NCBI GenBank assembly: GCA_015490005.1
Contig: WFYS01000082.1
Coordinates: 1 to 51,702, forward strand
Source: Desulfurellaceae bacterium
GTDB taxonomy: Bacteria > Campylobacterota_A > Desulfurellia > Desulfurellales > Hippeaceae
Direction: 5' to 3'
DNA length: 51,702 bases
The position numbers and the translations under genes were made by a program. The first letter of the stretch is position 1. The number at the start of each line of letters is the position of its first letter. The notes beneath the pieces were generated by a model that saw only the letters and a list, made by a program, of their open reading frames with translations, was not told the DNA's origin and searched no databases. Below, in pieces: positions 31,796 to 45,976 of the stretch.

Positions 31796-33133
31796 GTGAA
31801 GCTATCTATTATTGGAAGCGGATACGTTGGCCTTGTTACAGGGGCTTGCTTTGCAGAGATGGGAAATAATGTAATATGCGTAGATATTGATAAGGAGAAA
31901 GTCAGAAGGCTCAACGATGGTATTGTGCCTATATTCGAACCGGGTCTAGATAAACTGATTAAGAAAAATATTAAAAATGGCAATATATCATTTACAACAG
32001 ATACAGAATATGCCGTGAAAAATAGCGATATTGTGTTTATAGCTGTAGGAACGCCACAGTCAGAAGATGGCAGTGCAGATCTAAACCACGTTTTGGAAGC
32101 AGCAAAAAGCATAGGTAAGTTTATTGACCATGAAATGATAATTGTCGATAAATCTACTGTTCCTGTTGGGACGGCAGATAAAGTTAAGATGACTATTGAA
32201 GGAGAGGTTAAGAAGAGGTTTCCTGATGGCGCGCCATTTAATTTTGATGTTGTATCAAACCCAGAATTTTTGAAAGAGGGTGATGCAATAAGTGATTTTA
32301 TGAAGCCAGATAGAGTAATTGTTGGTGCAGATAAAGAGAGCTCGATGATTATAATGAAGGAATTGTATAGGCCTTTTACGCTAAACCACGAACGCTTTAT
32401 TGAGATGGATGTAAGAAGCGCAGAACTGACAAAGTATGCAGCAAATGCTATTTTAGCTACTAAAATTTCATTTATAAACGAAATTTCTCGTATTGCCGAG
32501 GCTTTGGGCGCTGACGTTAATAAGGTTAGAGCTGGTATAGGGAGTGATAGACGCATAGGATACCACTTTATCTATCCAGGGGTTGGTTATGGTGGAAGTT
32601 GCTTTCCTAAAGATGTGAGGGCTTTGGAAAAGATGGCAACGGATGCAGGAATAGAGCCAAAAATCATAAAGTCTGTGCAGGATGTCAATTATGAACAGCG
32701 CTTTTACTTTTTGAGTAAGATTTACAAAAGGTTTGGTGAAAATTTGGAAGGCTTCACGTTTGCTGTTTGGGGACTTGCTTTTAAACCGCAAACCGACGAT
32801 ATGAGGGAAGCGCCTTCAATAACTATTGTAAACGAGCTGACAAAAAGGGGTGCCAAGATAAAAGCTTACGACCCTGAAGCAATGGAAAACGCCAAGAACT
32901 TCTGGCTAAAGGGAAATGATGATGTTGAATACTTAAACAATAAATATGATACACTAAACGACTCAGACGCCATGATTTTGATTACCGAGTGGAAAGAATT
33001 TAGGAGCCCTGATTTTTACGAGGTTAAAAAGAGGTTGAAAAGGCCGGTAATTTTTGATGGCAGGAACCAGTATAACAGAGATTTCCTAAAAGAATTTGGG
33101 TTCGAATATTATCAAATAGGGGTCAGTGATTAG
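31796..33133 (+). CDS. UDP-glucose 6-dehydrogenase
   Basis: This 445-residue enzyme oxidises UDP-glucose to UDP-glucuronate for surface polysaccharides. It has the N-terminal Rossmann fold (IGSGYVGLVTGACFAEMG), the central GYGGSCFPKDVRAL with catalytic Cys269, and the C-terminal UDP-binding domain (WGLAFKPQTDDMREAPS). The start is GTG at 31796 behind GAGGAGGAG; a nearby ATG at 31790 is followed directly by TAG and is not a start. Its 3' end overlaps the convergent nuclease gene by 11 nt. Confidence 0.96.
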   Translation: MKLSIIGSGYVGLVTGACFAEMGNNVICVDIDKEKVRRLNDGIVPIFEPGLDKLIKKNIKNGNISFTTDTEYAVKNSDIVFIAVGTPQSEDGSADLNHVLEAAKSIGKFIDHEMIIVDKSTVPVGTADKVKMTIEGEVKKRFPDGAPFNFDVVSNPEFLKEGDAISDFMKPDRVIVGADKESSMIIMKELYRPFTLNHERFIEMDVRSAELTKYAANAILATKISFINEISRIAEALGADVNKVRAGIGSDRRIGYHFIYPGVGYGGSCFPKDVRALEKMATDAGIEPKIIKSVQDVNYEQRFYFLSKIYKRFGENLEGFTFAVWGLAFKPQTDDMREAPSITIVNELTKRGAKIKAYDPEAMENAKNFWLKGNDDVEYLNNKYDTLNDSDAMILITEWKEFRSPDFYEVKKRLKRPVIFDGRNQYNRDFLKEFGFEYYQIGVSD

Positions 33134-33953
33134 ATTTAATTAAGTTTTCGGCTTGTTTTTTTAATTGTTTTATTTTCCTTTGTTCAAAGCCAAAAGAGAG
33201 TAGGGTGTCTTCGTCTGTAGCCAAAAGATGCCTTACTAAGACTATATTGTGTTCAAGCAGAGTTTTTAAAAGATTTTGTTTTATGCCAATAAGTGTTGTA
33301 ACAGGAAAGAGATGTTTTTCCTCAATCATCTTTTCTAATCCGCTGTCTTCCGGATACCTCCAAGCTATCGATTTAAAGTTATAGCATCGCGCAAACCTTT
33401 TTGCTTCGTTGGTTAATCTTGTGTTTGTGACAAGCCATCCTTCGAAGTTGTCTTTTCTGTATTTTTTCTTTAATGGTTCTTCTAAATCTTTGAAGCGGGA
33501 ATTTACGTACATTGCCACTTTAGAATCCGATGCCCTTGATGCAGAGGAGTGGTACTTGCATTCAACGGCTACGACAAGGTCTTTTTCAAAAGCTAAAACG
33601 TCTATCTCGTGAGATATACACTTACCCTCTTCTACAACATCAACATGTGTTTCAAAATCGTAAAAATTCAAAAGATTTGCAAAAAAACGCTCAAAAGGGT
33701 AGCCACTTGGACCTAATCTGAGCATGGCTTTCTTAAGTGAGTATCGTGCCGCATAGGAATGATTAAGCTTTTTTAAAAGTTCCTTGGCGTATTTATATAT
33801 TAAATTAGTTGTTACATAATCAGGCACTCTTTCTTTTATTATATTTCCTATTTCTTCTGCTTCTTTCCTGTTTGTGCCTGAACGAGTAAGCGATTCTATT
33901 AGTTTATCCACTTGGAATTCTTCTACTTCACCACCTGCTTTAACTACTTTCAT
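33123..33953 (-). CDS. ATP-cone plus Mrr-like nuclease plus HhH fusion
   Basis: A 276-residue protein with three parts. Residues 1-80 resemble the ATP-cone, the nucleotide-sensing domain of ribonucleotide reductase and NrdR (VVKAGGEVEEFQVDKLIESL). Residues 85-200 form a PD-(D/E)XK endonuclease core with Glu88, Asp118 in HEIDVLA and Glu131-x-Lys133 in VECKYH. Residues of about 215-276 look like a helix-hairpin-helix DNA-binding module. All core catalytic residues are present, so it is probably an active, ATP- or dATP-gated DNase (inference). It starts directly after the chemoreceptor stop. No methylase is nearby. Confidence 0.82.
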   Translation of the reverse strand: MKVVKAGGEVEEFQVDKLIESLTRSGTNRKEAEEIGNIIKERVPDYVTTNLIYKYAKELLKKLNHSYAARYSLKKAMLRLGPSGYPFERFFANLLNFYDFETHVDVVEEGKCISHEIDVLAFEKDLVVAVECKYHSSASRASDSKVAMYVNSRFKDLEEPLKKKYRKDNFEGWLVTNTRLTNEAKRFARCYNFKSIAWRYPEDSGLEKMIEEKHLFPVTTLIGIKQNLLKTLLEHNIVLVRHLLATDEDTLLSFGFEQRKIKQLKKQAENLIKSNH

Positions 33954-35611
33954 TTAATCATTGTTCTCCCAGGTAAAGCCTATTCTCAAACCACCCCAAT
34001 GCTTACCTTCAAAATAAATTGGAACTGATATGTCATTCATTACAACACCCGTATCCCTCATGTACGTCTGCAAGAGCACCGGATTAGTGTTCCTTGCTGC
34101 TGCAAGTCCCGTTGGGTCGTTGAATATTCGCATTGATCTATTGCCTACTAAATCCTTTTCGTAGTCGCCAGTTAGTGGCTTGTCGTAGATAGTGTTGTGT
34201 GATGGAAGGTATCCATTGTTATCCACCAACACTACAAATTTAAAATTCGGATCCATTCCTAAATACTTATCTTCTATGGGTTGTATGTATTTCTTTGTAA
34301 AATCGGTGAATCTGGTTCTGTGTTTTTGTGGGTTAGTGTTTGGAACAGGAACGTAATTTCTATCCCACAAATCAGCAGACGAAATAATTCCCTTTTTTGC
34401 AGCGTCTTCAAATGTATACTCTATTTCTTTCTTAGCGTTGAGCAAAATTGAATAGACTTTATCAATGTACGACCCCGTTCTGAACTTGATCATAAACGTG
34501 AATAGCTCCTCGGCAGTCTTTGAAATCTTGTATGTATCTTCTCTGATTTTTTCAATTCTATCGGCAGATTTTGTTACGTCCTCTGTCATCTTATCAACTC
34601 TTTCTGCTATCATGTCTATAGAAGATGACTGTTCTTCAGCGGCAGTGGCTACGTCTTCTATCATTCTGCTTGCTTCTTGTACGCCACTTGCTATCTCGAT
34701 AAGTGAATCCGAGGTGTTTTTATCAGCTCTTTGCCCTCGTCCACTCTATCTATTAAACTGAGAGTCGCCTCTATGGTTGATTGTGTTTCGTTTTGGGTTT
34801 TGGAAACAATCTGCCTAATTTGCTCTGTGGAGTGTGCTGTTTTATCTGCGAGTTTTCTAATCTCATCTGCAACAACGGCAAAACCTCTACCAGCTTCTCC
34901 AGCACGGGCCGCCTCAATTGCTGCGTTTAAAGAAAGCAGTGCAGTTTGGTCGGTAATTTCATTAATAACCGCCACTATCTTTCCTATTTCTTCAGAGGAA
35001 GCTCCCAGTTTTTTCATCATAGCGGCATTGTTCTTTGTTTCTTCTGCTATAGATTCTATTTTTTGGATAGCAAGTTGTGCTTTATCAGACCCATCTTTTG
35101 CGATTTCATTCACGTTTTGCATAAAATCCGACGTATTTGTGATGTTTTGTGTAACGCTACCTATCGTATCCTTGATTTCATACATCATTGTCTTGATTTC
35201 TTCCATATCTTCTGCTTCTCTTTTTACGTTTAAAGAAATTCTTTCAGCGTTAAAACTGACTCTGGCAGCTTTAGTTGCAACATTGTTTGACACTTTTAAT
35301 GTTTCTTTTAAAGCGTCTTGCACTCCGTGTATAAATGCGTTCATTAGGTTTAAAAAGTGTAATGGCTTTGGAGGTTTGGGCAGCCTATCTGTTAAATCAA
35401 ATGTTGAGCATAGCCTAGTATTGCAAAATTTGTTCAGATCCTTAAGTGGCTTTATAAAGGTTTTGTAGTAATATAGTAAAAAGATTGAGAAGAACAATGG
35501 TGTTAATATAACGAAAGCTCCTAGAATAAGCCCTTTTGCAACAAAATAGGTAATGAGTATTATCAAAAAGTAAACCAAAAAAATCACAAGACTCACAGAT
35601 ATAAAATTCAT
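33954..35611 (-). pseudogene. methyl-accepting chemotaxis protein, broken by one frameshift
   Basis: The N-terminal frame has two membrane helices with almost no periplasmic loop (about 1-50) and most of the signalling domain, including the tip [21 protein letters not shown]. It ends early at 34691. The second frame resumes in the same signalling helix (VATAAEEQSSSIDMIAE) and adds a C-terminal domain of about 170 residues with WDRNYVPVPNTNPQKHRT, like Cache-type ligand domains. Adding one A to the five-A run at 34721-34717 (minus strand) restores [19 protein letters not shown] and a whole protein of about 552 residues. The start at 35611 has GGGGGAGG upstream. Confidence 0.88.
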
Positions 35612-35624
35612 ATTTTGCCTCCCC

Positions 35625-35645
35625 CTTAGCAAAATAAATGCTAAG
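35625..35645. repeat. short inverted repeat upstream of chemoreceptor
   Basis: CTTAGC and GCTAAG flank nine A/T bases just before the chemoreceptor ribosome-binding site. It could be an operator or an mRNA hairpin. It is too short to name. Confidence 0.3.
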
Positions 35646-35700
35646 TTATTAGCTACCACATTATGTGTTATATGTCAAAGTATTTATTAATTCTTATATG

Positions 35701-35728
35701 TTGACGTTGACACGTTTTTTTGTATAAT
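35701..35728 (+). promoter_or_regulatory. sigma-70 promoter of hydrogenase-like operon
   Basis: TTGACG (35701-35706) and a perfect TATAAT (35723-35728) are spaced by 16 nt. Transcription would begin near 35735, giving a leader of about 108 nt. A second TTGACA at 35707 is too close to the -10 to be used with it. Confidence 0.75.
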
Positions 35729-35734
35729 TCCCCC

Positions 35735-35842
35735 TCAAGGTTGAAGGCGGTGGGGTTCGCCTTAAACCGCTCTTCTTTTAATTCCCAGAAGGGCCGATAA
35801 CCCCTGCAAAGGGTTTATATAGTTTTTTGGCAGGAGGTGTCT
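35735..35842 (+). ncRNA. structured 5' leader, candidate translational riboswitch
   Basis: The leader can form a hairpin AAGGCG/CGCCTT (35744-35749 with 35758-35763) whose loop holds GGGGTT (35752-35757). That loop is perfectly complementary to AACCCC at 35799-35804, so a 6-bp pseudoknot is possible. The same AACCCCTGC stretch can instead pair locally with GGGTT (35811-35815), or by CCTGC with GCAGG (35830-35834), which covers part of the AGGAGG ribosome-binding site. A small hairpin CTTCT/AGAAG (35772-35791) lies between. Mutually exclusive pairings that reach the ribosome-binding site are the hallmark of a riboswitch or protein-bound leader. I cannot match it to a known class. Confidence 0.6.
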
Positions 35843-36793
35843 ATGTTGTATTTGCTAAGTGCATTGCAACTACTATTCGTGGTTGTTTTTGCTCCACTTG
35901 TTGTTGGTGTATTTAACAAATTATGTGAGATTTTAGAATCTAAGCAAGGTCCTTCGATTTTCCAGCCGTATTACGACCTTTACAAGTTATTTCACAAGCA
36001 GAGCGTTGTTCCTCAGGTTGCATCGCCAATGTTTCAAATTGTTCCTTATGTTACATTTGCTATGTATCTGTTTTTAACTCTTGTCCTTCCTATAATAACG
36101 GGATTTCCACTCTCTTTTGGTCCTGTTGTTGACTTTATAGGTGGCGGTTTGATTTTTGGTGCCATTGCTGGGTTGAAGAAGCTTGCTGCCATTGATAGCA
36201 GGAACAACTACTCTCATTTAGGCGTGTCAAGGGCTTCAAGCATCGGTGCATTGTCTGAACCAATTGTTGTGTTGATATTTATAACCTTTGGCGTTATTAC
36301 GCATACAAATAACCCCTATGTGGTTAACAATGTTTTACAGACCTCAACCGATTGGTACTTGTCGCTTATACATTGGTTCGTGGTTTTTGCCTTCTTTATG
36401 GCTTTAATTGTAGAGACAGGAAAGTTGCCTGTTGAATCCCATACATCAAATGAGTTTGGAATGATAGACCAGGCAATTGAGATGGAGTATTCAGGGCGCG
36501 AGCTTGCCCTAATGAAGTGGGGTGGATACATAAAACAGTTTTTATTGATGAGTGTATTTTTAAATGACTTTCTGTTCCCTTTTTTCGTTCCTATGAAGGT
36601 TTCTTTTGTGGCTGTGCTTTTGTATAGTTTAATCCATCTTGTTAAATTGTTCGTTCTTGTGCTAATTTTTGCCATAATTCAATCAACAATATCTAAGTAT
36701 AAGCTGTTCAAAAACTTTGAGTATGTGGCTGTTGCCTTTTCATTTGCATTTTTGGCTATTGTTGTTTTTTATGCAACGGGAGGTAGGTTATGA
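35843..36793 (+). CDS. hydrogenase-4/Complex I-like membrane subunit (HyfC/NuoH type)
   Basis: A 316-residue membrane protein with about eight helices, homologous in pattern to HyfC, EchB and NuoH, the subunit that joins the soluble arm to the ion-pumping arm. Family landmarks are KQGPSIFQPYYDLYKLFHK near the N-terminus and the loop ETGKLPVESHTSNEF with EYSGRELALMKWG. GTG at 35837 is in frame, but ATG at 35843 is best spaced from AGGAGG. It is the first gene of a six-gene operon and overlaps the next gene by 4 nt. Confidence 0.9.
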   Translation: MLYLLSALQLLFVVVFAPLVVGVFNKLCEILESKQGPSIFQPYYDLYKLFHKQSVVPQVASPMFQIVPYVTFAMYLFLTLVLPIITGFPLSFGPVVDFIGGGLIFGAIAGLKKLAAIDSRNNYSHLGVSRASSIGALSEPIVVLIFITFGVITHTNNPYVVNNVLQTSTDWYLSLIHWFVVFAFFMALIVETGKLPVESHTSNEFGMIDQAIEMEYSGRELALMKWGGYIKQFLLMSVFLNDFLFPFFVPMKVSFVAVLLYSLIHLVKLFVLVLIFAIIQSTISKYKLFKNFEYVAVAFSFAFLAIVVFYATGGRL

Positions 36794-37425
36794 AAGAGCT
36801 GTTTATTCTTGTGGGTTTTGCAGAGATTGTTTTGGTTATTTTTATGCAGTGGCAGTATTACTTAAAGAAAATCATAGTAACATTTGCTATTTCTTCATTG
36901 TTGATTGGATTGTTGCTTTTTATGCAAGGTGGCTTTCAAAACAATGTAAATCTGATAATTTTAGCTGTTTTAACGCTTTTAGTCAGGTTTTTATTCATAC
37001 CTTACTTTATGCTTAACCGTCTTGGAAAGGTTTATAAGGAGAAAAATCCTAAACAAGTTGTTTCTACGGGCGCATCAATAATTATTTCTTTTCTCCTTGT
37101 GATTTTAGCGTATGTTATTTACAGGCTAACTCTTTATAGATACATTTCTGTGGAAGCGGGCTCTATCCCGATAGCAATAATACTTCAGGGTATTTTCCTT
37201 GCAATTTCAAGAAACAATGCTTTTGTTCAGCTTATTGGTTATATGATTATGGAAAATAGCCTGTTTTTTATGGCTGGGTATATGTTTCCAGATTTACCCT
37301 TCATAGTTGAAGCTGGCATTCTTTTAGACCTTTTAGGTCTTGTTATGATTTCAGGTGTGGTTATGAAGCTGAGGGAAGGTTCTGTTTCAGAAGTTATAGA
37401 TGAATTTGATGAGTTCAGGGGGTAG
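36790..37425 (+). CDS. hydrogenase-4 component E-like membrane protein
   Basis: A 211-residue protein with about six to seven membrane helices and few charged residues, matching HyfE-type subunits (related to NuoK and MrpC). The segment QLIGYMIMENSLFFMAGYM keeps the membrane Glu that in NuoK-like subunits belongs to the ion path. It overlaps the upstream gene as ATGA and is 3 nt from the next. Confidence 0.85.
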   Translation: MKELFILVGFAEIVLVIFMQWQYYLKKIIVTFAISSLLIGLLLFMQGGFQNNVNLIILAVLTLLVRFLFIPYFMLNRLGKVYKEKNPKQVVSTGASIIISFLLVILAYVIYRLTLYRYISVEAGSIPIAIILQGIFLAISRNNAFVQLIGYMIMENSLFFMAGYMFPDLPFIVEAGILLDLLGLVMISGVVMKLREGSVSEVIDEFDEFRG

Positions 37426-37428
37426 GGC

Positions 37429-38805
37429 ATGTTTGTTTATTATTTTCCTTTTATTATCCTTGTTTTTGCTTCACTTTTGTGTGTTTTTAAAAGAGATGCA
37501 CTTGCAGCTTTCGTAAGTGTTTTATCGAGTTTAATTGTAAGTGCTTTGTCCATAGTTATTCTCCTTAAGCCCAATGTGACTGCAGGTTATCTGTTTATAG
37601 ACGGTTTTTCAAAAATCATGGTAGTTTTAATTTCGTTTATCTATCTGACAACAGCGCTTTTTTCCATAACCTATCTAAAACATGTGGAAAAGCCTCTTCT
37701 TAAGAAGAACTTTTATTTTCTCTATTTAAATCTATTTGTCCTTTCCATGCTGTTTAGTGTTGTGGTTAAGAATTTGGGTTTAATATGGGTGGGTATAGAG
37801 GCTACCACTATAACAAGCGCCTTGCTTGTTGCGATTGACAATGACAAACCGGCAATAGAGTCTGCCTGGAGATATATTATCATAGTTTCCGTTGGACTTA
37901 TCATGTCTCTTGTCGGTGTTGTATTTGTCTATGGAGCTTGTCACACTCTGGATATTACAAAAATTGCGTTGTTGAAGAGTGCAAACTATAAACTGCTCCT
38001 TTTGGGTTCTGTGTTTGTTGTTACGGGTTTTGCAACAAAGGCGGGCATTTTCCCCTTGCATACATGGTTGCCAGACGTTCACGGTAGAGCTATAGCCCCG
38101 ATAAGTGCCATATTTTCATCCATTTTGCTACCCGTTGCCCTTTTTGGTGTTTATAGGGTTTTGTCCAGTGTTGGGATGGATTCTCTACATCTATATGCAA
38201 TTGTGTTGGGCTTTTTGAGTGTGATTTTTGCAAGTATTTTCTTGGTCAATCAAAAATTTTACAAAAGGATGTTTGCGTATTCGTCCATTGAAAATATGGG
38301 TATGATTCTGATAGGTTTAGCCCTTTTCAATAAATATGCCTTCTTGGGCGCTGTTGTTTTGCTTGTTTCACACGCATTTGCAAAATCCTCTGCATTTTAT
38401 TCAACAGGCAATGTTCTAAATGTTTACAAAACAAGGGAGGTTTCAAAGGTAAAGGGCATGGTTGAAAGGTTGCCTTTTACTGCGTACAGTCTGGTTTTTT
38501 CAGCCCTTGCCGTGACTGGAGCACCGCCTTTTGGAACATTTTTGGGAGAATTGCTGATTATCTACGGTATTTATATAAAATTCGGACTATTTTGGGTGTT
38601 AGTTTTAGCAACATTTTTGGTTGTTGCATTTATGTCTGTAAATTACAAGGTTGCCAGAATGGCTTTTTCGTCCTCCGAGTTTGATAGGGTAGAAAAGGTT
38701 AGAATGAGTGCTTTTGTGCCACTTCTAAATGTAACTGTGTCATTCGTGATTGTATTTTTGATTGGCTTTATTGAAAAAATCCTTATAGCGGGGATGATAA
38801 AATGA
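37429..38805 (+). CDS. antiporter-like membrane subunit (HyfF/NuoN/MrpD type)
   Basis: A 458-residue antiporter-like subunit with about 14 helices. The ion-path residues are kept: Glu124 in WVGIEATTITSALL and Lys204 in ATKAGIFPLHTWLPDVHGRA, followed by the broken-helix region. It is expected to translocate H+ or Na+. The start at 37429 follows GGGGGTAGGG. The end overlaps the large-subunit gene by 4 nt. Confidence 0.92.
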   Translation: MFVYYFPFIILVFASLLCVFKRDALAAFVSVLSSLIVSALSIVILLKPNVTAGYLFIDGFSKIMVVLISFIYLTTALFSITYLKHVEKPLLKKNFYFLYLNLFVLSMLFSVVVKNLGLIWVGIEATTITSALLVAIDNDKPAIESAWRYIIIVSVGLIMSLVGVVFVYGACHTLDITKIALLKSANYKLLLLGSVFVVTGFATKAGIFPLHTWLPDVHGRAIAPISAIFSSILLPVALFGVYRVLSSVGMDSLHLYAIVLGFLSVIFASIFLVNQKFYKRMFAYSSIENMGMILIGLALFNKYAFLGAVVLLVSHAFAKSSAFYSTGNVLNVYKTREVSKVKGMVERLPFTAYSLVFSALAVTGAPPFGTFLGELLIIYGIYIKFGLFWVLVLATFLVVAFMSVNYKVARMAFSSSEFDRVEKVRMSAFVPLLNVTVSFVIVFLIGFIEKILIAGMIK

Positions 38806-40031
38806 GGTTGTTGGGTGTATTTAAAGAGGATAATAGAGAATTTTTTCTCTTACAGGATGAAGGTAAGTTTTTTAAGTCAGATGCTCAGAATTTGAAAGAT
38901 GAATTTTCTAATTATGATTTGATAAAGAACAGGGATGTTTCAATTGGTTCAGAGCCTGTAGAAGGAGAGGGTGTTTTCAACTTTAGATATGGTCCTGTTA
39001 CAGCAGGCGTTAAAGAAGCTGGTGTTTTCAATATTTATACATACGGTGAAAGAATTCTATCAGTAAACATTGATCCATCTTATAAGAAAAGAGATATTGA
39101 GAGGCTTATACTAAAAAAGAATATAGATGAGGGGCTAAAATTTGCTGAATCTGTCTGTGGGAATTTTTCTGTCTCGCACTCACTTGCTTTTTGTAGAGCT
39201 TTAGAAAACTGCGCTAAACTTGATTTGCCTGAGGATGCCGTTCGTTTGAGAGTTGTAGCACTTGAGCTTGAAAGATTATACAACCATACAACTGTTTTCT
39301 TGAAACTTGCAAGAGGAGCTTCTCAAAATGTTTTGACTTCTCATTTGAGTTTCGTATTTGAGGAGTTGCTCAGAATAAATAGAGATTTTGGGCTGAGCAG
39401 ATTTTTGAAGGGTGTGGTTGTACCGGGTGGTGTTCGCGTGAACGAAAGCGCAAATTTTGAGGATTTGTCTAAGAGACTGCTGAGTTTGAAGGATAAGTTT
39501 GAAGAGCTATACGAACATGCACTTAAAAGTTATAACTTCATCGATAGGATTCACAACACGGCGCCGCTTGATAGGGAACTTGCTTTGAAAATAGGTGTTA
39601 CAGGTCCGACGTTGAGGGCGTGTGGCGTGAAAGAGGATTTGAGGATAAAGGAAAAAGGATACGAAAAGCTCTCCGTTGTTGTAGAGGAAGATGGAGACTC
39701 TCTTGCAAGGATGGAGGTAAGGGTAAAAGAGTTTTTAAATTCTACAGATGTGATTGTTGACAATATGGCTAAGGTTAAATCTTTGGATAAGCTCAAGGGC
39801 GTAGATTTAAAAGATTTAAATGGTGAAGGTATAGGATATAGCGAGTCACCTAGTGGGTTATTGGTTTACTATGTGAAACTGAATAGAGGCATTTTGGAAA
39901 ATGTTTACATATCAACTCCATCTGTTTTTGGTTTTAAGGCGTTTTCTGAGGCGTTTAGAGGGTTTATATTTACGGATTTCAGCTTTGCCTTTGATTCCTT
40001 TGGAGTCCACTTTTCAGACTGTGCGAGGTAG
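38802..40031 (+). CDS. NiFe-hydrogenase large subunit/NuoD homolog lacking the Ni-Fe site
   Basis: This 409-residue protein has the fusion layout of group 4 large subunits: a NuoC-like N-terminal region (about 1-60, FRYGPVTAGV) and a NuoD/HyfG-like domain. The first metal motif, normally CGxC, is Cys119-Gly-Asn-Phe122 in SVCGNFSVSHSLAFC, so the second Cys is Phe. The C-terminal motif DPCxxC is replaced by DSFGVH (398-403). Three of the four Ni ligands are therefore missing. The family scaffold (ALELERLYNH, VVVPGGVR) is intact. It cannot bind a normal Ni-Fe centre and so is not a hydrogenase in the usual sense. Ehr-type complexes and the Pyrococcus Mbs/Mbx enzymes are the nearest concepts. Confidence 0.9.
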   Translation: MRLLGVFKEDNREFFLLQDEGKFFKSDAQNLKDEFSNYDLIKNRDVSIGSEPVEGEGVFNFRYGPVTAGVKEAGVFNIYTYGERILSVNIDPSYKKRDIERLILKKNIDEGLKFAESVCGNFSVSHSLAFCRALENCAKLDLPEDAVRLRVVALELERLYNHTTVFLKLARGASQNVLTSHLSFVFEELLRINRDFGLSRFLKGVVVPGGVRVNESANFEDLSKRLLSLKDKFEELYEHALKSYNFIDRIHNTAPLDRELALKIGVTGPTLRACGVKEDLRIKEKGYEKLSVVVEEDGDSLARMEVRVKEFLNSTDVIVDNMAKVKSLDKLKGVDLKDLNGEGIGYSESPSGLLVYYVKLNRGILENVYISTPSVFGFKAFSEAFRGFIFTDFSFAFDSFGVHFSDCAR

Positions 40032-40040
40032 GGGGTGTTT

Positions 40041-40496
40041 ATGAAGTCGTGGGTTTTTTACGGGTTATCCAATAGATTGACGGAGAGGTTTAAAAAGAAA
40101 GATGGTAAGGTCAAGGGCTTAAGTCCTGTGTTTAGGAATTCTCTCCATATATTTCCAATTGATGTGGGAAATGACAATGAGTTGAATTTTGAGATAGAGG
40201 CTCTTCAGTCTGCACAGTACAATATCCACAGGTTCGGCATCTTTTTTACAGACTCTCCAAGACACGCCGATATTTTGCTAATTCTCGGTAGGTGTACGGA
40301 AAAGATGGTTTCTCCTTTGAAGGAGACGATAAATCAACTACCCAGTCCATATGGAATAGTCGTTATAGAGGGTAGTCAACCGTTTGGCATAAAACCGAAA
40401 GAGTTGGATTTAGATAATGTGTTGGCTTATTATGAGCAATATCTATCTGCAGATGAGGTTCTTTCTGTTTTGCTAAACATCATGGAGGTGAAATGA
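40041..40496 (+). CDS. NuoB/HyfI-like small subunit lacking iron-sulfur ligands
   Basis: A 151-residue protein recognisable as the NuoB/HyfI small subunit by SLHIFPIDVGN, FEIEALQSAQYNIHRFGI and SPRHADILLILG. The CxxC motif of the proximal [4Fe-4S] cluster (family GSCNGCDIEI) reads GNDNELNFEI, with Asp45 and Leu48 for the cysteines. The third ligand (family GACA) is GSQP, and the PGCPPRP segment with the fourth is absent. One Cys (85) is at a non-ligand place. No cluster of the usual kind can form. A GTG at 40035 is in frame; ATG at 40041 fits AGGTAGGGGG better. Confidence 0.85.
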   Translation: MKSWVFYGLSNRLTERFKKKDGKVKGLSPVFRNSLHIFPIDVGNDNELNFEIEALQSAQYNIHRFGIFFTDSPRHADILLILGRCTEKMVSPLKETINQLPSPYGIVVIEGSQPFGIKPKELDLDNVLAYYEQYLSADEVLSVLLNIMEVK

Positions 40497-42358
40497 TGGT
40501 TGTATTGTATTTAATCGGTGCTTTGGCTGGTTTTTTGAATAGAAAGCTAAGTTATTTTCTGGGTTTGTTGGCTAGTTTGCTCGCTTTGTATGTGGGTGTA
40601 AAGGCGACATTTTTTGGCTTTTCAGGTACTGCTCTATTTCATTTTTTTGACAATACTACTGTTGGTATAAATGTTGATAAATTAAACGGCATGTTCTTGG
40701 CTATTGCATCGTTGTCTTTTATTGCTGTTACACTGTTTTCTTTAGATTTTGGCGAGCTATACAGAAAAAGAATGGCAATCTTCTTGAATTTATCAATGCT
40801 TGGAATGGTGTTGATTCTTCTTGCCCACGATGGAATAACTTTTTTAATTGGGTGGGAGATAATGACCATTTTTTCCTATCTTTTGATTGTTGAACACAAA
40901 GGGGCTTATAAGGAGGCATTTAAGTTCTTGGCATTTAGTGAACTTTCAACGGTTTTACTTATTATTGGGTTTTTAGCACTTTACATTTCAAAGGGTAACT
41001 TTGCACTATCAGGCAGTACTAACAATTTAGTGTTTGTTCTTTTTACATCGCTTGCTTTCATAATAAAGATGGGTATTATTCCATTCCATACATGGCTAAA
41101 AGATGCACACTCCAAAGCCCCTTCCAATGCCTCTGCACTGTTGAGTGCGCCTGTAACATTAATGGGTGTCTACGGTTTGTTTAGGGTTATTGACCTTGCT
41201 GGATATAATCATTTGTGGGGGATAATTGCTGTTATTCTGGGTAGTGTCTCTGCTTTTTGGGGAGCAATATCTGCTGCTGCCTCGAAGGGTTTAAAGATTT
41301 TACCTGCATATTCAACCGTTGAAAATAATGGGATGATTTTAGCTATGCTGGGTTTTGCATCCTGCGCCCATGAGTATTCTACAAACTCGACTCTATTTAA
41401 ATTTGCTTACTTGACTGCGATAGTGCTTTCGCTTTCACATACACTCGCAAAAACACTTCTTTTCCTATCAATTGGACAGGCTAAGGAGCAGTTGGATGAG
41501 GAGAGTATTGATAATGTAAGAGGAATACATGAGAGTGTAGGAAAAATTCCAGCTTTAGGTGTTGTGATCTCTGGCTTGTCGTTTAGTGCGTTTCCTCTAC
41601 TTTTGGGTTATGTAGCTGAGTGGATGATGTTAGAGTCGATATTCCAATCTTATCAATTCACAAGCGTGTTTAACAGGGTAATAACCTCAACGGGAGGGGT
41701 TCTTTTGTCTTTGGGTATGGGCTTTGCCTCATTCTCTATGATAAAATTAATAGGCTACTCTGCATTGGGTTTTTCACACGGCAAAAAAGCCAAACCGATG
41801 AATAGAGTATTCATGCACTCTGCAGAGCTCCTCTTGATTGGTTTAATAGCGCTCTTTAGCTTTTTTGCAGTTAGATTGTTCTTTGGATTTGGGTATTCTC
41901 AGTTTGTAATAGGAGCATTAGCTGTTCCTAAGGGCTGGCTCATTGCAAGTGCTAAACCTGTTTTCGGAGTCATATCACCTGCATTTTTGGCTATAGTTTT
42001 GGCGGTTTTATTTGTTGTTCCTTTTGTTATCTATCTAAAAAGCAGGGCAACAACAAAAAGGGTCATCTCCTGGAATGGAGGTTTAAACTTAACAGAAGAG
42101 GAGTATTTCACTGCCAATGCATTCTCCTTTATAATCGAGTACATCTTGAGATTTGTTTATGCGACAAAAGAGATAAAGGATGGAAACAGAGTATTTGTCT
42201 CAATCAGAGACGTATTTGATGATGTCTATAATTATTTTGTAGGAATAGCTAACAGAGTTACATATCTGATAAGTAAGCTCGTTATGAATGGAAAAGTATA
42301 TTTTTATCTATCTTACATTTTGACTATGTTTGTCTTAATATTTATTGTTTTTGGGTAG
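40493..42358 (+). CDS. antiporter-like membrane subunit (HyfB/NuoL type)
   Basis: A 621-residue antiporter-like subunit with about 16 helices and a long C-terminal amphipathic region (about 540-600) like the lateral helix of NuoL/HyfB. It keeps Glu122 in GWEIMTIFSYLL and Lys192 in IKMGIIPFHTWLKDAHSKAPSN. It closes the operon, overlapping the small-subunit gene by 4 nt (ATGA). With the HyfF-like subunit the complex has two ion-path modules. Confidence 0.92.
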   Translation: MMVVLYLIGALAGFLNRKLSYFLGLLASLLALYVGVKATFFGFSGTALFHFFDNTTVGINVDKLNGMFLAIASLSFIAVTLFSLDFGELYRKRMAIFLNLSMLGMVLILLAHDGITFLIGWEIMTIFSYLLIVEHKGAYKEAFKFLAFSELSTVLLIIGFLALYISKGNFALSGSTNNLVFVLFTSLAFIIKMGIIPFHTWLKDAHSKAPSNASALLSAPVTLMGVYGLFRVIDLAGYNHLWGIIAVILGSVSAFWGAISAAASKGLKILPAYSTVENNGMILAMLGFASCAHEYSTNSTLFKFAYLTAIVLSLSHTLAKTLLFLSIGQAKEQLDEESIDNVRGIHESVGKIPALGVVISGLSFSAFPLLLGYVAEWMMLESIFQSYQFTSVFNRVITSTGGVLLSLGMGFASFSMIKLIGYSALGFSHGKKAKPMNRVFMHSAELLLIGLIALFSFFAVRLFFGFGYSQFVIGALAVPKGWLIASAKPVFGVISPAFLAIVLAVLFVVPFVIYLKSRATTKRVISWNGGLNLTEEEYFTANAFSFIIEYILRFVYATKEIKDGNRVFVSIRDVFDDVYNYFVGIANRVTYLISKLVMNGKVYFYLSYILTMFVLIFIVFG

Positions 42359-42529: not shown

Positions 42530-43351
42530 GTGCACTTTCTAGTATTTATCAAACAGGTGCCTGATGCTGCCCAGGTTAGGGTGGATTATGAGACTGGTAC
42601 CTTAATTAGGGAAGGGGTGCCAGCTATCATTAATCCGTTCGATAAGCACGCTATTGAAGCAGCTGTAAGATTAAAAAATCAGTTTGGAGGCAAGGTTTCG
42701 GTTGTATGCATGGGCCCTCCTATGGCAGAGGATGCCTTAAAAGAGGCCATGTCCATGGGAGCCGATAAAGCGTTCCTGTTGAGTGACAGGATTTTTGCTG
42801 GATCTGACACACTAGCCACAAGTTATGCTTTGTGGGCTGCAGCTAAACAAATTATAAAAGAAGAGGGACCGGTAGACGTTTTCTTTGCTGGAAAACAGGC
42901 TATCGATGGTGATACGGCGCAGACTGGTCCTGGTATTGCAACTAGGTTTAATGTTCCTTTAATAACCTATGTTGTTGATATTAAAAATGTTGACCCCGAA
43001 AAGAAGACTTTGGAATTGGTAAGGCTTTTGGAGAGTGGGCAAGAAGTTATTCAAACTACAATGCCTTGCTTCTTAACAGTGGAAGAGGAGCTGAACACTT
43101 TGAGCTATGCACCTTTGCCATATTTAATTAGAGCTGCTAAAACCTCTGTAAAGGTTTTGAACTCTAAAAATACTGAAATAGAGGCTGAGTATTGCGGATT
43201 AAAGAACTCTCCTACAAAAGTTAGAAAAGCGTTTACCCCTCCAAAGAGAGAGCGTGGCGAGATGATTGAGGGTGATTCTGTGGATGGCATCATTAACCAG
43301 CTTTATGAAAAAATCGAGCCCGTATTGAAAACTATGGGCAAAGTACAATAA
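42530..43351 (+). CDS. fixA: electron transfer flavoprotein beta subunit (FixA)
   Basis: A 273-residue EtfB-type protein (IKQVPDAAQVRVDYETGTL, MGADKAFLLSDR, GKQAIDGDTAQTGPG). With FixB it forms a flavoprotein that takes electrons from NADH. Four genes in the order fixABCX indicate the bifurcating type, which reduces quinone and ferredoxin together (family knowledge). The start is GTG at 42530 after AAAGGAGG; no closer ATG fits the family N-terminus. Confidence 0.93.
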   Translation: MHFLVFIKQVPDAAQVRVDYETGTLIREGVPAIINPFDKHAIEAAVRLKNQFGGKVSVVCMGPPMAEDALKEAMSMGADKAFLLSDRIFAGSDTLATSYALWAAAKQIIKEEGPVDVFFAGKQAIDGDTAQTGPGIATRFNVPLITYVVDIKNVDPEKKTLELVRLLESGQEVIQTTMPCFLTVEEELNTLSYAPLPYLIRAAKTSVKVLNSKNTEIEAEYCGLKNSPTKVRKAFTPPKRERGEMIEGDSVDGIINQLYEKIEPVLKTMGKVQ

Positions 43352-43366
43352 GGGTGAGGTTGAGAA

Positions 43367-44380
43367 ATGATTAAACAAGATATAAGTAAGTATAAGCATG
43401 TTTGGGTTTTCATTGAGCATGAAAATGGTGAGGTGGCAAGGGTTTCCTTTGAGCTTTTAACAAAAGCAAGGGAGCTTGCAAAAGACTTAGGGTGCGAAGT
43501 TCATGCGTTTACGGTAGGAGATAAGGTTGAGCAGTTCGCAGATGAGGTCTTCAAATATGGAGCTAAGAAATTTTTTGTAATTGAAGACCCATTTTTGAAA
43601 GATTATATTACCGAGCCTTACAGGGATGCAATCGTTCATTTAATAGAAAAACATAAACCAGAAGTGGTTCTGATAGGTGCTACAACTTTGGGTAGAGATT
43701 TGGCAGGAACAATTGCTACTGTTTTGCAGACAGGCTTGACTGCAGATACGACTGCTTTAGATATTGATCCAAAGACAAAGAATCTATTGATGACAAGGCC
43801 TACCTTTGGTGGTAACTTGATGGCTACGATTTTCTGTCCAGACAACAGGCCTCAGATGTCAACATCAAGGCCAGGCGTTTACAAAGCCATTGAAGAGCCA
43901 GCTAAGGGGCAAGTTGTAAAAGAGGAATTTGAATTTGATAAATCCAAGTACACGAAGCAAATTATTGAAAAGATTATAGAAGAAGGCGAAAAAGTAAATC
44001 TTGGGTTCTATGATATAGTTGTGTCTGGCGGCTTTGGAATGGGTTCTAAAGAGAATATGAAGTTAATACAAGAACTAGCCGATGTTCTTGGTGGTACATG
44101 GGCTGCAAGTAGAAAAGCAGTACAGGCTGGTTGGGCTCCCCAAACAAGACAGGTTGGGCAAACTGGCCAAACTGTTCACCCAAAAATCTATATAGCGTGT
44201 GGTATTTCTGGGGCGATACAGCACCAAGCTGGTATGAAGTCTTCAGAGGTTATTATTGCAATCAATAAAGACCCAGATGCCCCCATATTTGAGATTGCAA
44301 CATACGGAATAATGGGTGATGTTATAGAAGTTCTTCCGAAGATGACACAAATGTTTAAGGAAAAATTAGGAAAGGCTTAA
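43367..44380 (+). CDS. fixB: electron transfer flavoprotein alpha subunit (FixB)
   Basis: A 337-residue EtfA-type subunit. The C-terminal FAD domain is intact, with GFGMGSKEN, QVGQTGQTVHPKIYIACGIS and SSEVIIAINKDPDAPIFEIA. The N-terminal domain packs on FixA. It follows fixA by 15 nt and precedes fixC by 13 nt. Confidence 0.95.
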   Translation: MIKQDISKYKHVWVFIEHENGEVARVSFELLTKARELAKDLGCEVHAFTVGDKVEQFADEVFKYGAKKFFVIEDPFLKDYITEPYRDAIVHLIEKHKPEVVLIGATTLGRDLAGTIATVLQTGLTADTTALDIDPKTKNLLMTRPTFGGNLMATIFCPDNRPQMSTSRPGVYKAIEEPAKGQVVKEEFEFDKSKYTKQIIEKIIEEGEKVNLGFYDIVVSGGFGMGSKENMKLIQELADVLGGTWAASRKAVQAGWAPQTRQVGQTGQTVHPKIYIACGISGAIQHQAGMKSSEVIIAINKDPDAPIFEIATYGIMGDVIEVLPKMTQMFKEKLGKA

Positions 44381-44393
44381 AAAGGAGAGCGAA

Positions 44394-45695
44394 ATGAGTA
44401 AAAAGGATTTTGATGTAATAGTGGTTGGTGCTGGCCCAGCTGGAATGGCAGCTGCTTACGTTTTGGCTAAAGCTGGTGTTGATGTTATTGTTATAGAAAG
44501 AGGAAAATTTCCTGGTTCTAAAAACGTAATGGGCGGTATCTTCTACAGAAAGCCTATGGATGACCTAATTCCTGAATTTTACAAGGAAGCCCCCATTGAA
44601 AGACATATAGTTGAGCAGAGAATGTGGCTTATGGACGATGTGTCTCACTTTAGTATGGGGATTAAAACTCAGAAGCACAACTCTGAACCTTACAACTGTT
44701 TTAGTGTATTAAGAGCCCAATTCGATAAGTGGTTCTCTAAAAAGGTTGTTGAGGCAGGAGCCTTGTTAATTAATGAAACGGTTGTTACAGAACCTATCGT
44801 TGAGAACGGAAAGGTTGTAGGTGTTAGAACTGATAGACCACAAGGTGACCTATATGCAGATTGTGTTATAGCGGCAGACGGCGTTCAATCTTTTTTAGCA
44901 AAATCTTTAGGTTTAAGGAAAAAGATAACACCAAACAAAGTTGCTTTGGGTGTAAAAGAGATTATAGGTTTAAGTGAAGAACAGGTTAACGATAGATTTG
45001 GTATAAAGGATTCCAAAGAGGGTGTGACTATAGAAATCACAGGTCCATTCTTAAAAGGAATGGAAGGAATGGCTTGGATGTATACCAATAAAAACTCTGT
45101 GTCTATAGGCATAGGTGTAATAATTGATGATTTAATTAACCATAACATGAATCCTAACGATTTACTTGAATCCTTGAAAAATCATCCTTCAGTTTTACCT
45201 TTGATTGAAGGTGGAGAAACAAGGGAGTATCTTGCCCATGTAATACCAGAAGGCGGCTACAAGAGCGTTCCTAGGATGTATGCAGATGGCTTCATGGTTG
45301 CAGGTGACGCAGCAATGCTTGTTGATAGCGTACATAGAGAAGGTTCAAACTTGGCTGTAGAGAGTGGTAAATTGGCAGCAAAGACATACTTGGAAGCCAG
45401 AGAATCGGGTGATTTTTCTGAAAAAACTCTTTCGAGATATCAAGAAAAATTGGAAGAAACATATGTGCTACAAGATTTGAGATACTACAAGAACCTACCA
45501 GAGCTACTTGAGGAGAAGAGATACTTACTAACAGAATACCCACAGTTCTTAATTGATGCAATGACTGAAATATATACGGTTGATGGAGTTCCAAAACCAG
45601 AGAAGTTTAGGAAAATAAAGGGTGAACTTAAGAGTAGGTTTGGGTATATTGGACTTGCAAAAGATTTATACACTATTTGGAGGAAATTAAGATGA
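44394..45695 (+). CDS. fixC: FixC flavoprotein-quinone oxidoreductase
   Basis: A 433-residue ETF-quinone oxidoreductase-like flavoprotein. The N-terminal FAD fold shows VVGAGPAGMAAAYVLAKAG. A second FAD motif is GFMVAGDAAMLVDSVHREG. It passes electrons from the FixAB flavin to the quinone pool, using the FixX iron-sulfur clusters. The stop overlaps fixX as ATGA. The ribosome-binding site is AAGGAGAG. Confidence 0.94.
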   Translation: MSKKDFDVIVVGAGPAGMAAAYVLAKAGVDVIVIERGKFPGSKNVMGGIFYRKPMDDLIPEFYKEAPIERHIVEQRMWLMDDVSHFSMGIKTQKHNSEPYNCFSVLRAQFDKWFSKKVVEAGALLINETVVTEPIVENGKVVGVRTDRPQGDLYADCVIAADGVQSFLAKSLGLRKKITPNKVALGVKEIIGLSEEQVNDRFGIKDSKEGVTIEITGPFLKGMEGMAWMYTNKNSVSIGIGVIIDDLINHNMNPNDLLESLKNHPSVLPLIEGGETREYLAHVIPEGGYKSVPRMYADGFMVAGDAAMLVDSVHREGSNLAVESGKLAAKTYLEARESGDFSEKTLSRYQEKLEETYVLQDLRYYKNLPELLEEKRYLLTEYPQFLIDAMTEIYTVDGVPKPEKFRKIKGELKSRFGYIGLAKDLYTIWRKLR

Positions 45696-45976
45696 AAAAG
45701 CTTAGAATAGAAGATAAGCTTTACCTTGTAGGCTATAATGTTGACCATGAATATAGCCATCTAGGGATTTCTGATTCAGAGGCGTGCAAGACCTGCGAGA
45801 AGAAGCAGTGCACATATGTTTGCCCAGCCAGTGTTTATAGTTGGGACGAAAAGGAACAGAAAATTAATATTAACTACGATGCTTGTTTAGAGTGCGGTAC
45901 TTGTAGGTTTGCCTGTGATTATATAACTTGGAAGTATCCACGTGGTGGTTTTGGTGTAGCCTATAAATTTGGCTAA
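45692..45976 (+). CDS. fixX: FixX ferredoxin-like protein
   Basis: A 94-residue ferredoxin-like partner of FixC. It has Cys32, 35, 40 and 44 (CKTCEKKQCTYVC) and Cys65, 68, 71 and 75 (CLECGTCRFAC), enough ligands for two clusters, plus the family C-terminal WKYPRGGFGV. The reading frame extends to 45677, but ATG at 45692 overlaps the fixC stop and has TTGGAGGA upstream. A strong terminator follows 27 nt later. Confidence 0.95.
   Translation: MKKLRIEDKLYLVGYNVDHEYSHLGISDSEACKTCEKKQCTYVCPASVYSWDEKEQKININYDACLECGTCRFACDYITWKYPRGGFGVAYKFG

What the first reader, a model, noticed from the sequence alone, without database searches (positions are those of the whole stretch)
35843..42358. Hydrogenase-4/Complex I-like complex with intact ion pumps but almost no metal ligands
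Six overlapping genes encode HyfC-, HyfE-, HyfF-, HyfG-, HyfI- and HyfB-like subunits. Seen in sequence: the large subunit keeps only one of four Ni ligands (CGNF for CGxC, DSFGVH for DPCxxC). The small subunit has lost every ligand of the proximal [4Fe-4S] cluster (Asp and Leu for CxxC, GSQP for GACA, no PGCPPRP). Yet HyfF- and HyfB-like subunits keep the membrane Glu and Lys pairs, and the scaffold motifs of the large subunit are conserved. No ferredoxin-like subunit or maturation gene is present. Ehr complexes and Mbs/Mbx show that such enzymes can lose the Ni-Fe site, but loss in both soluble subunits would leave a machine with no visible redox centre. It might be a conformationally driven ion channel or antiporter, or bind another partner, such as a quinone at the large/small/NuoH-like junction.
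Basis: partly seen in the sequence, partly recalled or inferred. Interest (0 to 1): 0.87.

Follow-up and report, generated by a model that had tools for sequence, protein, structure and literature searches.

The report
Complex I relative without redox metals
A six-protein membrane machine related to hydrogenase-4 and respiratory complex I has lost the amino acids that would hold its nickel-iron and iron-sulfur centres, yet it is kept intact by selection in 17 bacterial species, so it probably still moves ions but by some means other than the usual passage of electrons.

Summary
The six-gene cassette (35837-42358, +) is intact, under purifying selection, and found in the same order in 17 of 25 genomes of the phylum, including finished Hippea maritima MH2T. 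In all 17 the small subunit lacks the four-Cys site of the proximal [4Fe-4S] cluster, and the large subunit lacks three or four of the four Ni-Fe cysteines. No cysteine is invariant in any subunit. Conserved membrane Glu/Lys/His residues remain. The closest relatives, Thermoplasmata archaeal complexes, also lack the Ni-Fe site but keep the proximal cluster ligands plus a ferredoxin-like segment, so the cluster was lost secondarily. On the large-subunit tree the proximal cluster was lost at least three times (Desulfurellota, a Mycobacterium plasmid, an Allomeiothermus plasmid); a single loss is rejected (p = 4e-8). Only the Desulfurellota copies also lack the ferredoxin-like cysteines. No partner gene is conserved beside the cassette; fixABCX lies downstream only in this species and its sister. 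Nickel-free 'Ehr' complexes are known; I found no report of one with no metal centre at all. Best reading: a redox-inert ion (probably proton) transporter or gate, with the former redox arm as structural or regulatory cap. That function is inferred, not shown.

The parts
35837..36793 (+). HyfC/NuoH-like membrane anchor subunit (318 aa; GTG start, alternative ATG at 35843)
   Evidence: PF00146 E=1.4e-28. Slowest-evolving subunit. Keeps E141 and E217 (NuoH E157, E228) and invariant E193, E200, E206, D211; NuoH E216 and E220 are T/S and M/S.
36790..37425 (+). HyfE-like membrane subunit (211 aa; C-terminal part NuoK-like)
   Evidence: NCBIfam hydrogenase 4 membrane subunit E=1.1e-12. Invariant E155, E174, D180.
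37429..38805 (+). HyfF-like antiporter-type subunit (458 aa)
   Evidence: PF00361 E=4.4e-47. Keeps E124 (NuoM E144), K204 (NuoM K234), H315 and E374 (NuoM E407); NuoM K265 aligns with P235.
38802..40031 (+). HyfG/NuoD-like large subunit without a Ni-Fe site (409 aa)
   Evidence: PF00346 E=5.8e-24. Ni-Fe Cys columns C119, F122, H403, D406. AF2 pLDDT 91.5; best PDB match HycE 7z0s_E, TM 0.82.
40035..40496 (+). HyfI/NuoB-like small subunit without a proximal [4Fe-4S] site (153 aa)
   Evidence: NuoB family E=5.9e-11. Ligand columns D, L, S, Q. AF2 pLDDT 80.8; best PDB match MbhJ 6cfw_J, TM 0.69.
40493..42358 (+). HyfB-like antiporter-type subunit with ND3-like C-terminal part (621 aa)
   Evidence: NCBIfam HyfB E=3.1e-104. 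Keeps E122, K192, H316, E376; the ND3-like loop Cys of HycC/HyfB (WxCG) is replaced (WNGG).
35701..35728 (+). promoter-like site TTGACG-16-TATAAT, 108 bp before the first gene
   Evidence: Consensus scan, 11 of 12 matches. Such sites are no more frequent in the region than in shuffles, so this is a suggestion only.

Best explanation
This is a complete member of the complex I/group 4 hydrogenase superfamily that has no Ni-Fe site, no proximal [4Fe-4S] site and no ferredoxin-like cluster site, so it cannot pass electrons by the family's route. It most likely works as a redox-independent ion transporter or gate. The two antiporter-type subunits and the HyfC/HyfE path conduct H+ (perhaps exchanged for another cation). 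The former large/small subunit arm is kept as a structural and regulatory cap whose pocket and beta1-beta2 loop acid still handle protons, or bind a ligand or partner that sets the gate. Shown: gene set, ligand loss, conservation, purifying selection, predicted fold of the soluble subunits, repeated loss of the proximal cluster site. Inferred: assembly as one complex, absence of any cofactor, and transport.
For: All 17 Desulfurellota copies lack the four-Cys proximal-cluster site and three or four Ni-Fe cysteines, and no cysteine is invariant in any of the six subunits. The cassette keeps its order and frames in every complete locus. Purifying selection acts on all six genes. Soluble subunits do not evolve faster against HyfF than in cluster-bearing archaeal relatives (G/F 1.14 vs 1.85; I/F 1.13 vs 1.34). 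Key membrane residues used for proton transfer in complex I are invariant. The hydrogenase beta1-beta2 loop acid (HycE E193 = E72, D/E in 15 of 17) and the proton-path residues H162, E310 and R272 (R/K) remain (roles from PMC9474812). The fold is predicted to be retained. The proximal cluster was lost at least three times, so complexes of this family can evidently be useful without it. No neighbour is conserved that would bring in electrons.
Against: No transport, expression or protein data were available. The cassette lacks the Mrp B, C, E, F and G subunits of proven antiporters. Several E-channel acids of NuoH and the middle Lys of NuoM are replaced, so the proton path is not identical to that of complex I. 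The hydrogenase canopy Arg and Asp (HycE R478, D529) are lost. Presence or absence of MnhE or NhaA in the genomes does not track the cassette. A non-metal cofactor such as a flavin or quinone cannot be ruled out from sequence.
Confidence: 0.5

Rival explanations
1. An Ehr-type oxidoreductase that still performs redox chemistry through an unrecognised cofactor or partner, for example a quinone or flavin in the large/small/HyfC cavity reduced directly by a soluble donor. FixABCX next door would be the donor in this species.
For: The pocket fold is predicted to be retained. fixABCX follows the cassette by 172 bp in the window and L003. Cluster-bearing Ehr relatives are suspected to be redox enzymes (PMC6349859).
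Against: fixABCX is not found beside the cassette in the other Desulfurellota loci (two of these loci end at short contig ends). The complex I quinone Tyr and His are missing. No cysteine is invariant. Without the proximal cluster there is no relay from any donor to the pocket.
Confidence: 0.17
2. A pump driven by non-redox chemistry in the old active-site pocket or by a bound partner enzyme, by analogy with DAB complexes (recalled, not tested), where a NuoL-like subunit works with a carbonic-anhydrase-like protein.
For: Three His (H126, H162, H181) and many acidic and basic residues are invariant in the large subunit of the Desulfurellota group. The C-terminal (D/E)SFG...(C/A)A(R/K) motif is strongly conserved.
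Against: H162 is conserved in hydrogenases and complex I anyway. No partner enzyme gene is conserved nearby. No substrate is suggested by context. The spatial arrangement of the His residues was not examined.
Confidence: 0.13
3. A decaying remnant: the redox arm is degenerating and the genes persist for no function.
For: Ligand loss in both soluble subunits.
Against: 17 cassettes without internal stops down to about 36% large-subunit identity, low dN/dS and no relative acceleration of the soluble subunits.
Confidence: 0.03
4. A sensory or regulatory membrane complex: the gate state is read by chemoreceptors or other signalling proteins rather than used for bulk transport.
For: Chemoreceptor or other signalling genes flank the cassette in several loci (window, L045, L048, L049, L050, L053).
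Against: The neighbour is not conserved in position or orientation and is absent in most loci.
Confidence: 0.06

Closest known systems
Ehr (energy-converting hydrogenase-related) complexes, including the Thermoplasmata 'putative group 4 hydrogenases' (Yelton 2013, PMC3750248) and the Sulfobacillus ones (Justice 2014, PMC4378227)
   Same: Same six subunits and, in Thermoplasmata and in Burkholderia and Mycobacterium plasmids, the same gene order C-E-F-G-I-B. Ni-Fe ligands lost. Nearest in the large-subunit tree.
   Different: Thermoplasmata and most plasmid Ehr small subunits keep all four proximal-cluster Cys, and several also have a ferredoxin-like Cys segment. The Desulfurellota group has neither.
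E. coli hydrogenase-3/FHL (Hyc) and hydrogenase-4 (Hyf)
   Same: Homologous large, small, HyfB, HyfC, HyfE, HyfF subunits; same predicted fold as HycE and HycG.
   Different: Has all Ni-Fe and Fe-S ligands, HycB/HycF or HyfA/HyfH ferredoxin subunits and maturation genes, none of which the cassette has.
Allomeiothermus silvanus pMESIL01 and Mycobacterium branderi pJCM12687 Ehr-like complexes
   Same: Ni-Fe site and proximal cluster ligands both lost.
   Different: Keep four Cys of an N-terminal ferredoxin-like segment. Independent branches on the tree. A. silvanus has a different gene order.
Respiratory complex I (NuoB, D, H, K, L, M, N)
   Same: Fold and membrane Glu/Lys residues; an acid at the position of the fourth Ni-Fe Cys.
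   Different: No N2 cluster site, no NADH module, no quinone Tyr/His.
Mrp Na+/H+ antiporter
   Same: Antiporter-type subunits of the same Pfam family (PF00361) and a proposed function without redox chemistry.
   Different: No Mrp B, C, E, F or G subunits in the cassette; retains the large and small subunits and the NuoH-like anchor.

Membership tests
Group 4 [NiFe] hydrogenase (Hyc/Hyf/Mbh) | Two CxxC motifs binding Ni-Fe in the large subunit | tested here: not met
   C119, F122, H403, D406 against HycE C241, C244, C531, C534; in all 17 relatives the last three are non-Cys, and C119 is V in one.
Group 4 [NiFe] hydrogenase (Hyc/Hyf/Mbh) | Proximal [4Fe-4S] cluster in the small subunit (four Cys) | tested here: not met
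   D, L, S, Q in the window; across 17 copies only a single lone Cys in one column of L053.
Group 4 [NiFe] hydrogenase (Hyc/Hyf/Mbh) | HyfB/C/E/F-type membrane arm | tested here: met
   NCBIfam and Pfam matches, conserved charged residues.
Ehr complexes | Group 4-like gene set with Ni-Fe ligands lost | tested here: met
Ehr complexes | Fe-S relay able to carry electrons (proximal cluster, ferredoxin-like subunit or segment) | tested here: not met
   No proximal-cluster site and no ferredoxin-like segment in any Desulfurellota copy; proximal-cluster Cys present in all 33 Thermoplasmatota copies.
Respiratory complex I | N2 cluster; quinone-site Tyr and His in NuoD | tested here: not met
   Columns carry no N2 Cys; the NuoD Tyr column is Gly or another residue; the loop His column is K/G/A/L and similar.
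Respiratory complex I | NADH-oxidising module NuoEFG and NuoI | tested here: not met
   Not in the cassette or its immediate flanks; a separate NuoB/NuoD pair is on another contig.
Mrp antiporter | MrpA-G gene set | tested here: not met
   No MnhE (PF01899) match in the window's genome, which is 86% complete; no such genes in the cassette.
Mrp antiporter | Na+/H+ or K+/H+ exchange activity | not testable with these tools
   Needs transport assays.
Mbs/Mbx | Polysulfide/ferredoxin redox complex with Fe-S clusters in small and ferredoxin subunits | tested here: inconclusive
   MbsL and MbsJ (6u8y) are distant matches. Mbs sequences were not aligned column by column, but the small-subunit cluster ligands are absent here.

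The most novel reading that the evidence does not exclude
A whole clade of complex I-superfamily machines has abandoned redox chemistry altogether and become a metal-free ion transporter or gate, and loss of the cluster next to the active site has happened independently in at least two other bacterial lineages. This would show that the membrane arm and the coupling arm can be selected for without electron transfer.
Probability: 0.48. Interest if true: 0.9.

Novelty: new variant of a known kind. Interest (0 to 1): 0.78.

Why it matters
How redox chemistry drives ion pumping in complex I is still debated. A natural homologue with the same pocket, anchor and antiporter-type subunits but no redox centre would let the coupling and transport parts be studied apart. 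It also warns that 'hydrogenase-4' or 'formate hydrogenlyase' annotations in Desulfurellota may not mean hydrogen metabolism: a comparative genome paper lists a formate-hydrogen lyase in Desulfurella amilsii (PMC5317093), although whether that entry is this cassette was not checked. The plasmid-borne relatives with a broken relay suggest that the phenomenon is wider than one phylum.

Tried and rejected
Sequencing or assembly error: rejected (17 species, a finished genome, low dN/dS). Shifted ligands: rejected for cysteines (no invariant Cys in any subunit). Pseudogene or relaxed soluble arm: rejected. FixABCX as a general partner: not conserved beyond L003. A conserved unnamed partner gene: no family in more than 5 of 23 loci. 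Replacement of Mrp or NhaA antiporters: no clear pattern; of the 17 genomes with the cassette, 4 also have MnhE (G013, G014, G016, G017) and 3 have NhaA (G019-G021), and MnhE without the cassette occurs in G009 and G018. A single origin of proximal-cluster loss: rejected by AU test. Expression data for Desulfurella or Hippea: none retrieved. Whole genome in the Python box: not available. Prior description of Fe-S loss: not found in the held library in six topical searches, but subscription papers such as Coppi 2005 and Marreiros 2013 were not readable.
Full report
What is there. The window lies in a MAG of the Desulfurellales. A sister species with 87% identity in the large subunit is titled 'Desulfurellales bacterium', and G007, in the same genus code as the window, has exactly the genome length of Hippea maritima MH2T, 1,694,430 bp. 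Six genes on the + strand, with 4-bp overlaps or 3-bp gaps, encode HyfC-, HyfE-, HyfF-, HyfG-, HyfI- and HyfB-like proteins. A promoter-like site precedes the first gene, but such sites are no more frequent here than in shuffles.

Metal ligands. Mapped on E. coli HycG, the proximal-cluster cysteines C48, C51, C115 and C145 are Asp, Leu, Ser and Gln in the window. Mapped on HycE, the Ni-Fe cysteines C241, C244, C531 and C534 are Cys119, Phe122, His403 and Asp406. The ND3-like loop cysteine near the end of HyfB (WxCG in HycC and HyfB) is also replaced (WNGG in the window).

It is a clade-wide trait. A small-subunit profile found the cassette in 17 of 25 genomes of the phylum; 16 loci are complete and one is cut by a contig end. 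In all 17 the four-Cys small-subunit site and the second, third and fourth Ni-Fe cysteines are gone, down to 36% large-subunit identity. No cysteine is invariant in any of the six proteins, so the ligands have not simply moved. In the same genome the NuoB of ordinary complex I keeps its cluster cysteines, an internal control against error. dN/dS is about 0.02-0.25 for all six genes in five species pairs. The soluble subunits do not evolve faster relative to HyfF than they do in cluster-bearing archaeal relatives. Decay is therefore very unlikely.

Where it came from. The nearest relatives outside the phylum are Thermoplasmata archaeal cassettes in the same gene order. Their large subunits also lack the Ni-Fe site, but all 33 small subunits examined keep the four proximal-cluster cysteines, and those read in full also carry an N-terminal CPxxAI...CIxCxxC stretch like a ferredoxin. 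In the large-subunit tree the Desulfurellota copies form one clade (100/100) inside or beside the Thermoplasmatota group; archaeal monophyly is not rejected (p = 0.07). Cluster loss is therefore secondary in Desulfurellota. Plasmid-borne relatives give a graded picture. Burkholderia, Caballeronia, Cupriavidus, Azospirillum, Methylovirgula and Rhodococcus copies keep the proximal-cluster cysteines, and a Streptomyces plasmid copy keeps three of four. Mycobacterium branderi and Allomeiothermus silvanus copies have lost all four but keep four ferredoxin-like cysteines. The tree needs three losses, and forcing the losers into one clade is rejected (p = 4e-8). Long branches (L100, L102, L103) and unequal composition call for caution.

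What is kept. HyfF keeps the equivalents of NuoM E144, K234, H348 and E407; HyfB keeps the Glu, Lys, His and second Glu in the same columns; HyfC and HyfE keep invariant acids. The middle Lys and some E-channel acids of complex I are replaced. In the large subunit the beta1-beta2 loop acid (HycE E193, window E72), H162, E310 and R272 of the proton path described for FHL (PMC9474812) are kept, but canopy R478 and D529 are not. AlphaFold models of both soluble subunits keep the family fold, with best matches HycE (TM 0.82) and MbhJ (TM 0.69). These are single-chain models; assembly was not modelled.

How it may work. Without a proximal cluster, Ni-Fe site, quinone Tyr/His or ferredoxin, electron flow by the known route is not possible. 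This is inference from ligands, but a strong one. With a conserved membrane arm and a non-decaying soluble arm, the simplest reading is a redox-independent ion transporter or gate, probably for protons because the Mrp/Mbh subunits linked to Na+ are absent. What opens or drives it is not known: a gradient, a bound ligand or a partner. FixABCX is not the general partner, since it adjoins the cassette only in the window and L003. A role in pH homeostasis is attractive because relatives occur in acid-mine archaea and bacteria, but this is speculation.

Known or new. Ni-free Ehr complexes are documented in AMD archaea, Sulfobacillus, comammox Nitrospira and Margulisbacteria (PMC3750248, PMC4378227, PMC10284858, PMC6349859); the passages read speak of the Ni-Fe motifs only. 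I found no report of Fe-S loss in the small subunit, within an open-access library that lacks the key subscription papers. The placement is therefore Ehr-like, new variant; membership in [NiFe] hydrogenases, complex I or Mrp fails tested features.

Noticed in passing
window 33954-35659 (-): A methyl-accepting chemotaxis protein is split over two frames (34691-35659 and 33954-34664); the MCP signal domain breaks at position 127 of 172. Frameshift, pseudogene or assembly error.
   Followed up: partly
window 42530-45976 (+): fixABCX (ETF subunits, FixC, FixX ferredoxin) follows the cassette by 172 bp; found beside it only in the window and L003.
   Followed up: yes
L045, L048, L049, L050, L053 and window, flanks of the cassette: Chemoreceptor genes (L045, L048, L049, L050, window) or another signalling gene (L045, L048, L053) lie beside the cassette in several species.
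   Followed up: partly
L102:7093-7887 and L104:7077-7949: Ehr-like small subunits on plasmids of Mycobacterium branderi and Allomeiothermus silvanus lack the proximal cluster ligands but keep ferredoxin-like cysteines.
   Followed up: yes
L101, L102, L103, L112: DUF190 genes, and in L103 and L112 CrcB-family genes, lie near plasmid Ehr-like genes.
   Followed up: no
window 33123-33953 (-) and L053 next to the cassette: An AF1548-like nuclease with an ATP-cone domain lies near the cassette in two distant species.
   Followed up: no
L109:5845-6360: A Streptomyces plasmid Ehr-like small subunit has Arg for the first cluster Cys and keeps the other three, a possible early step of loss.
   Followed up: no
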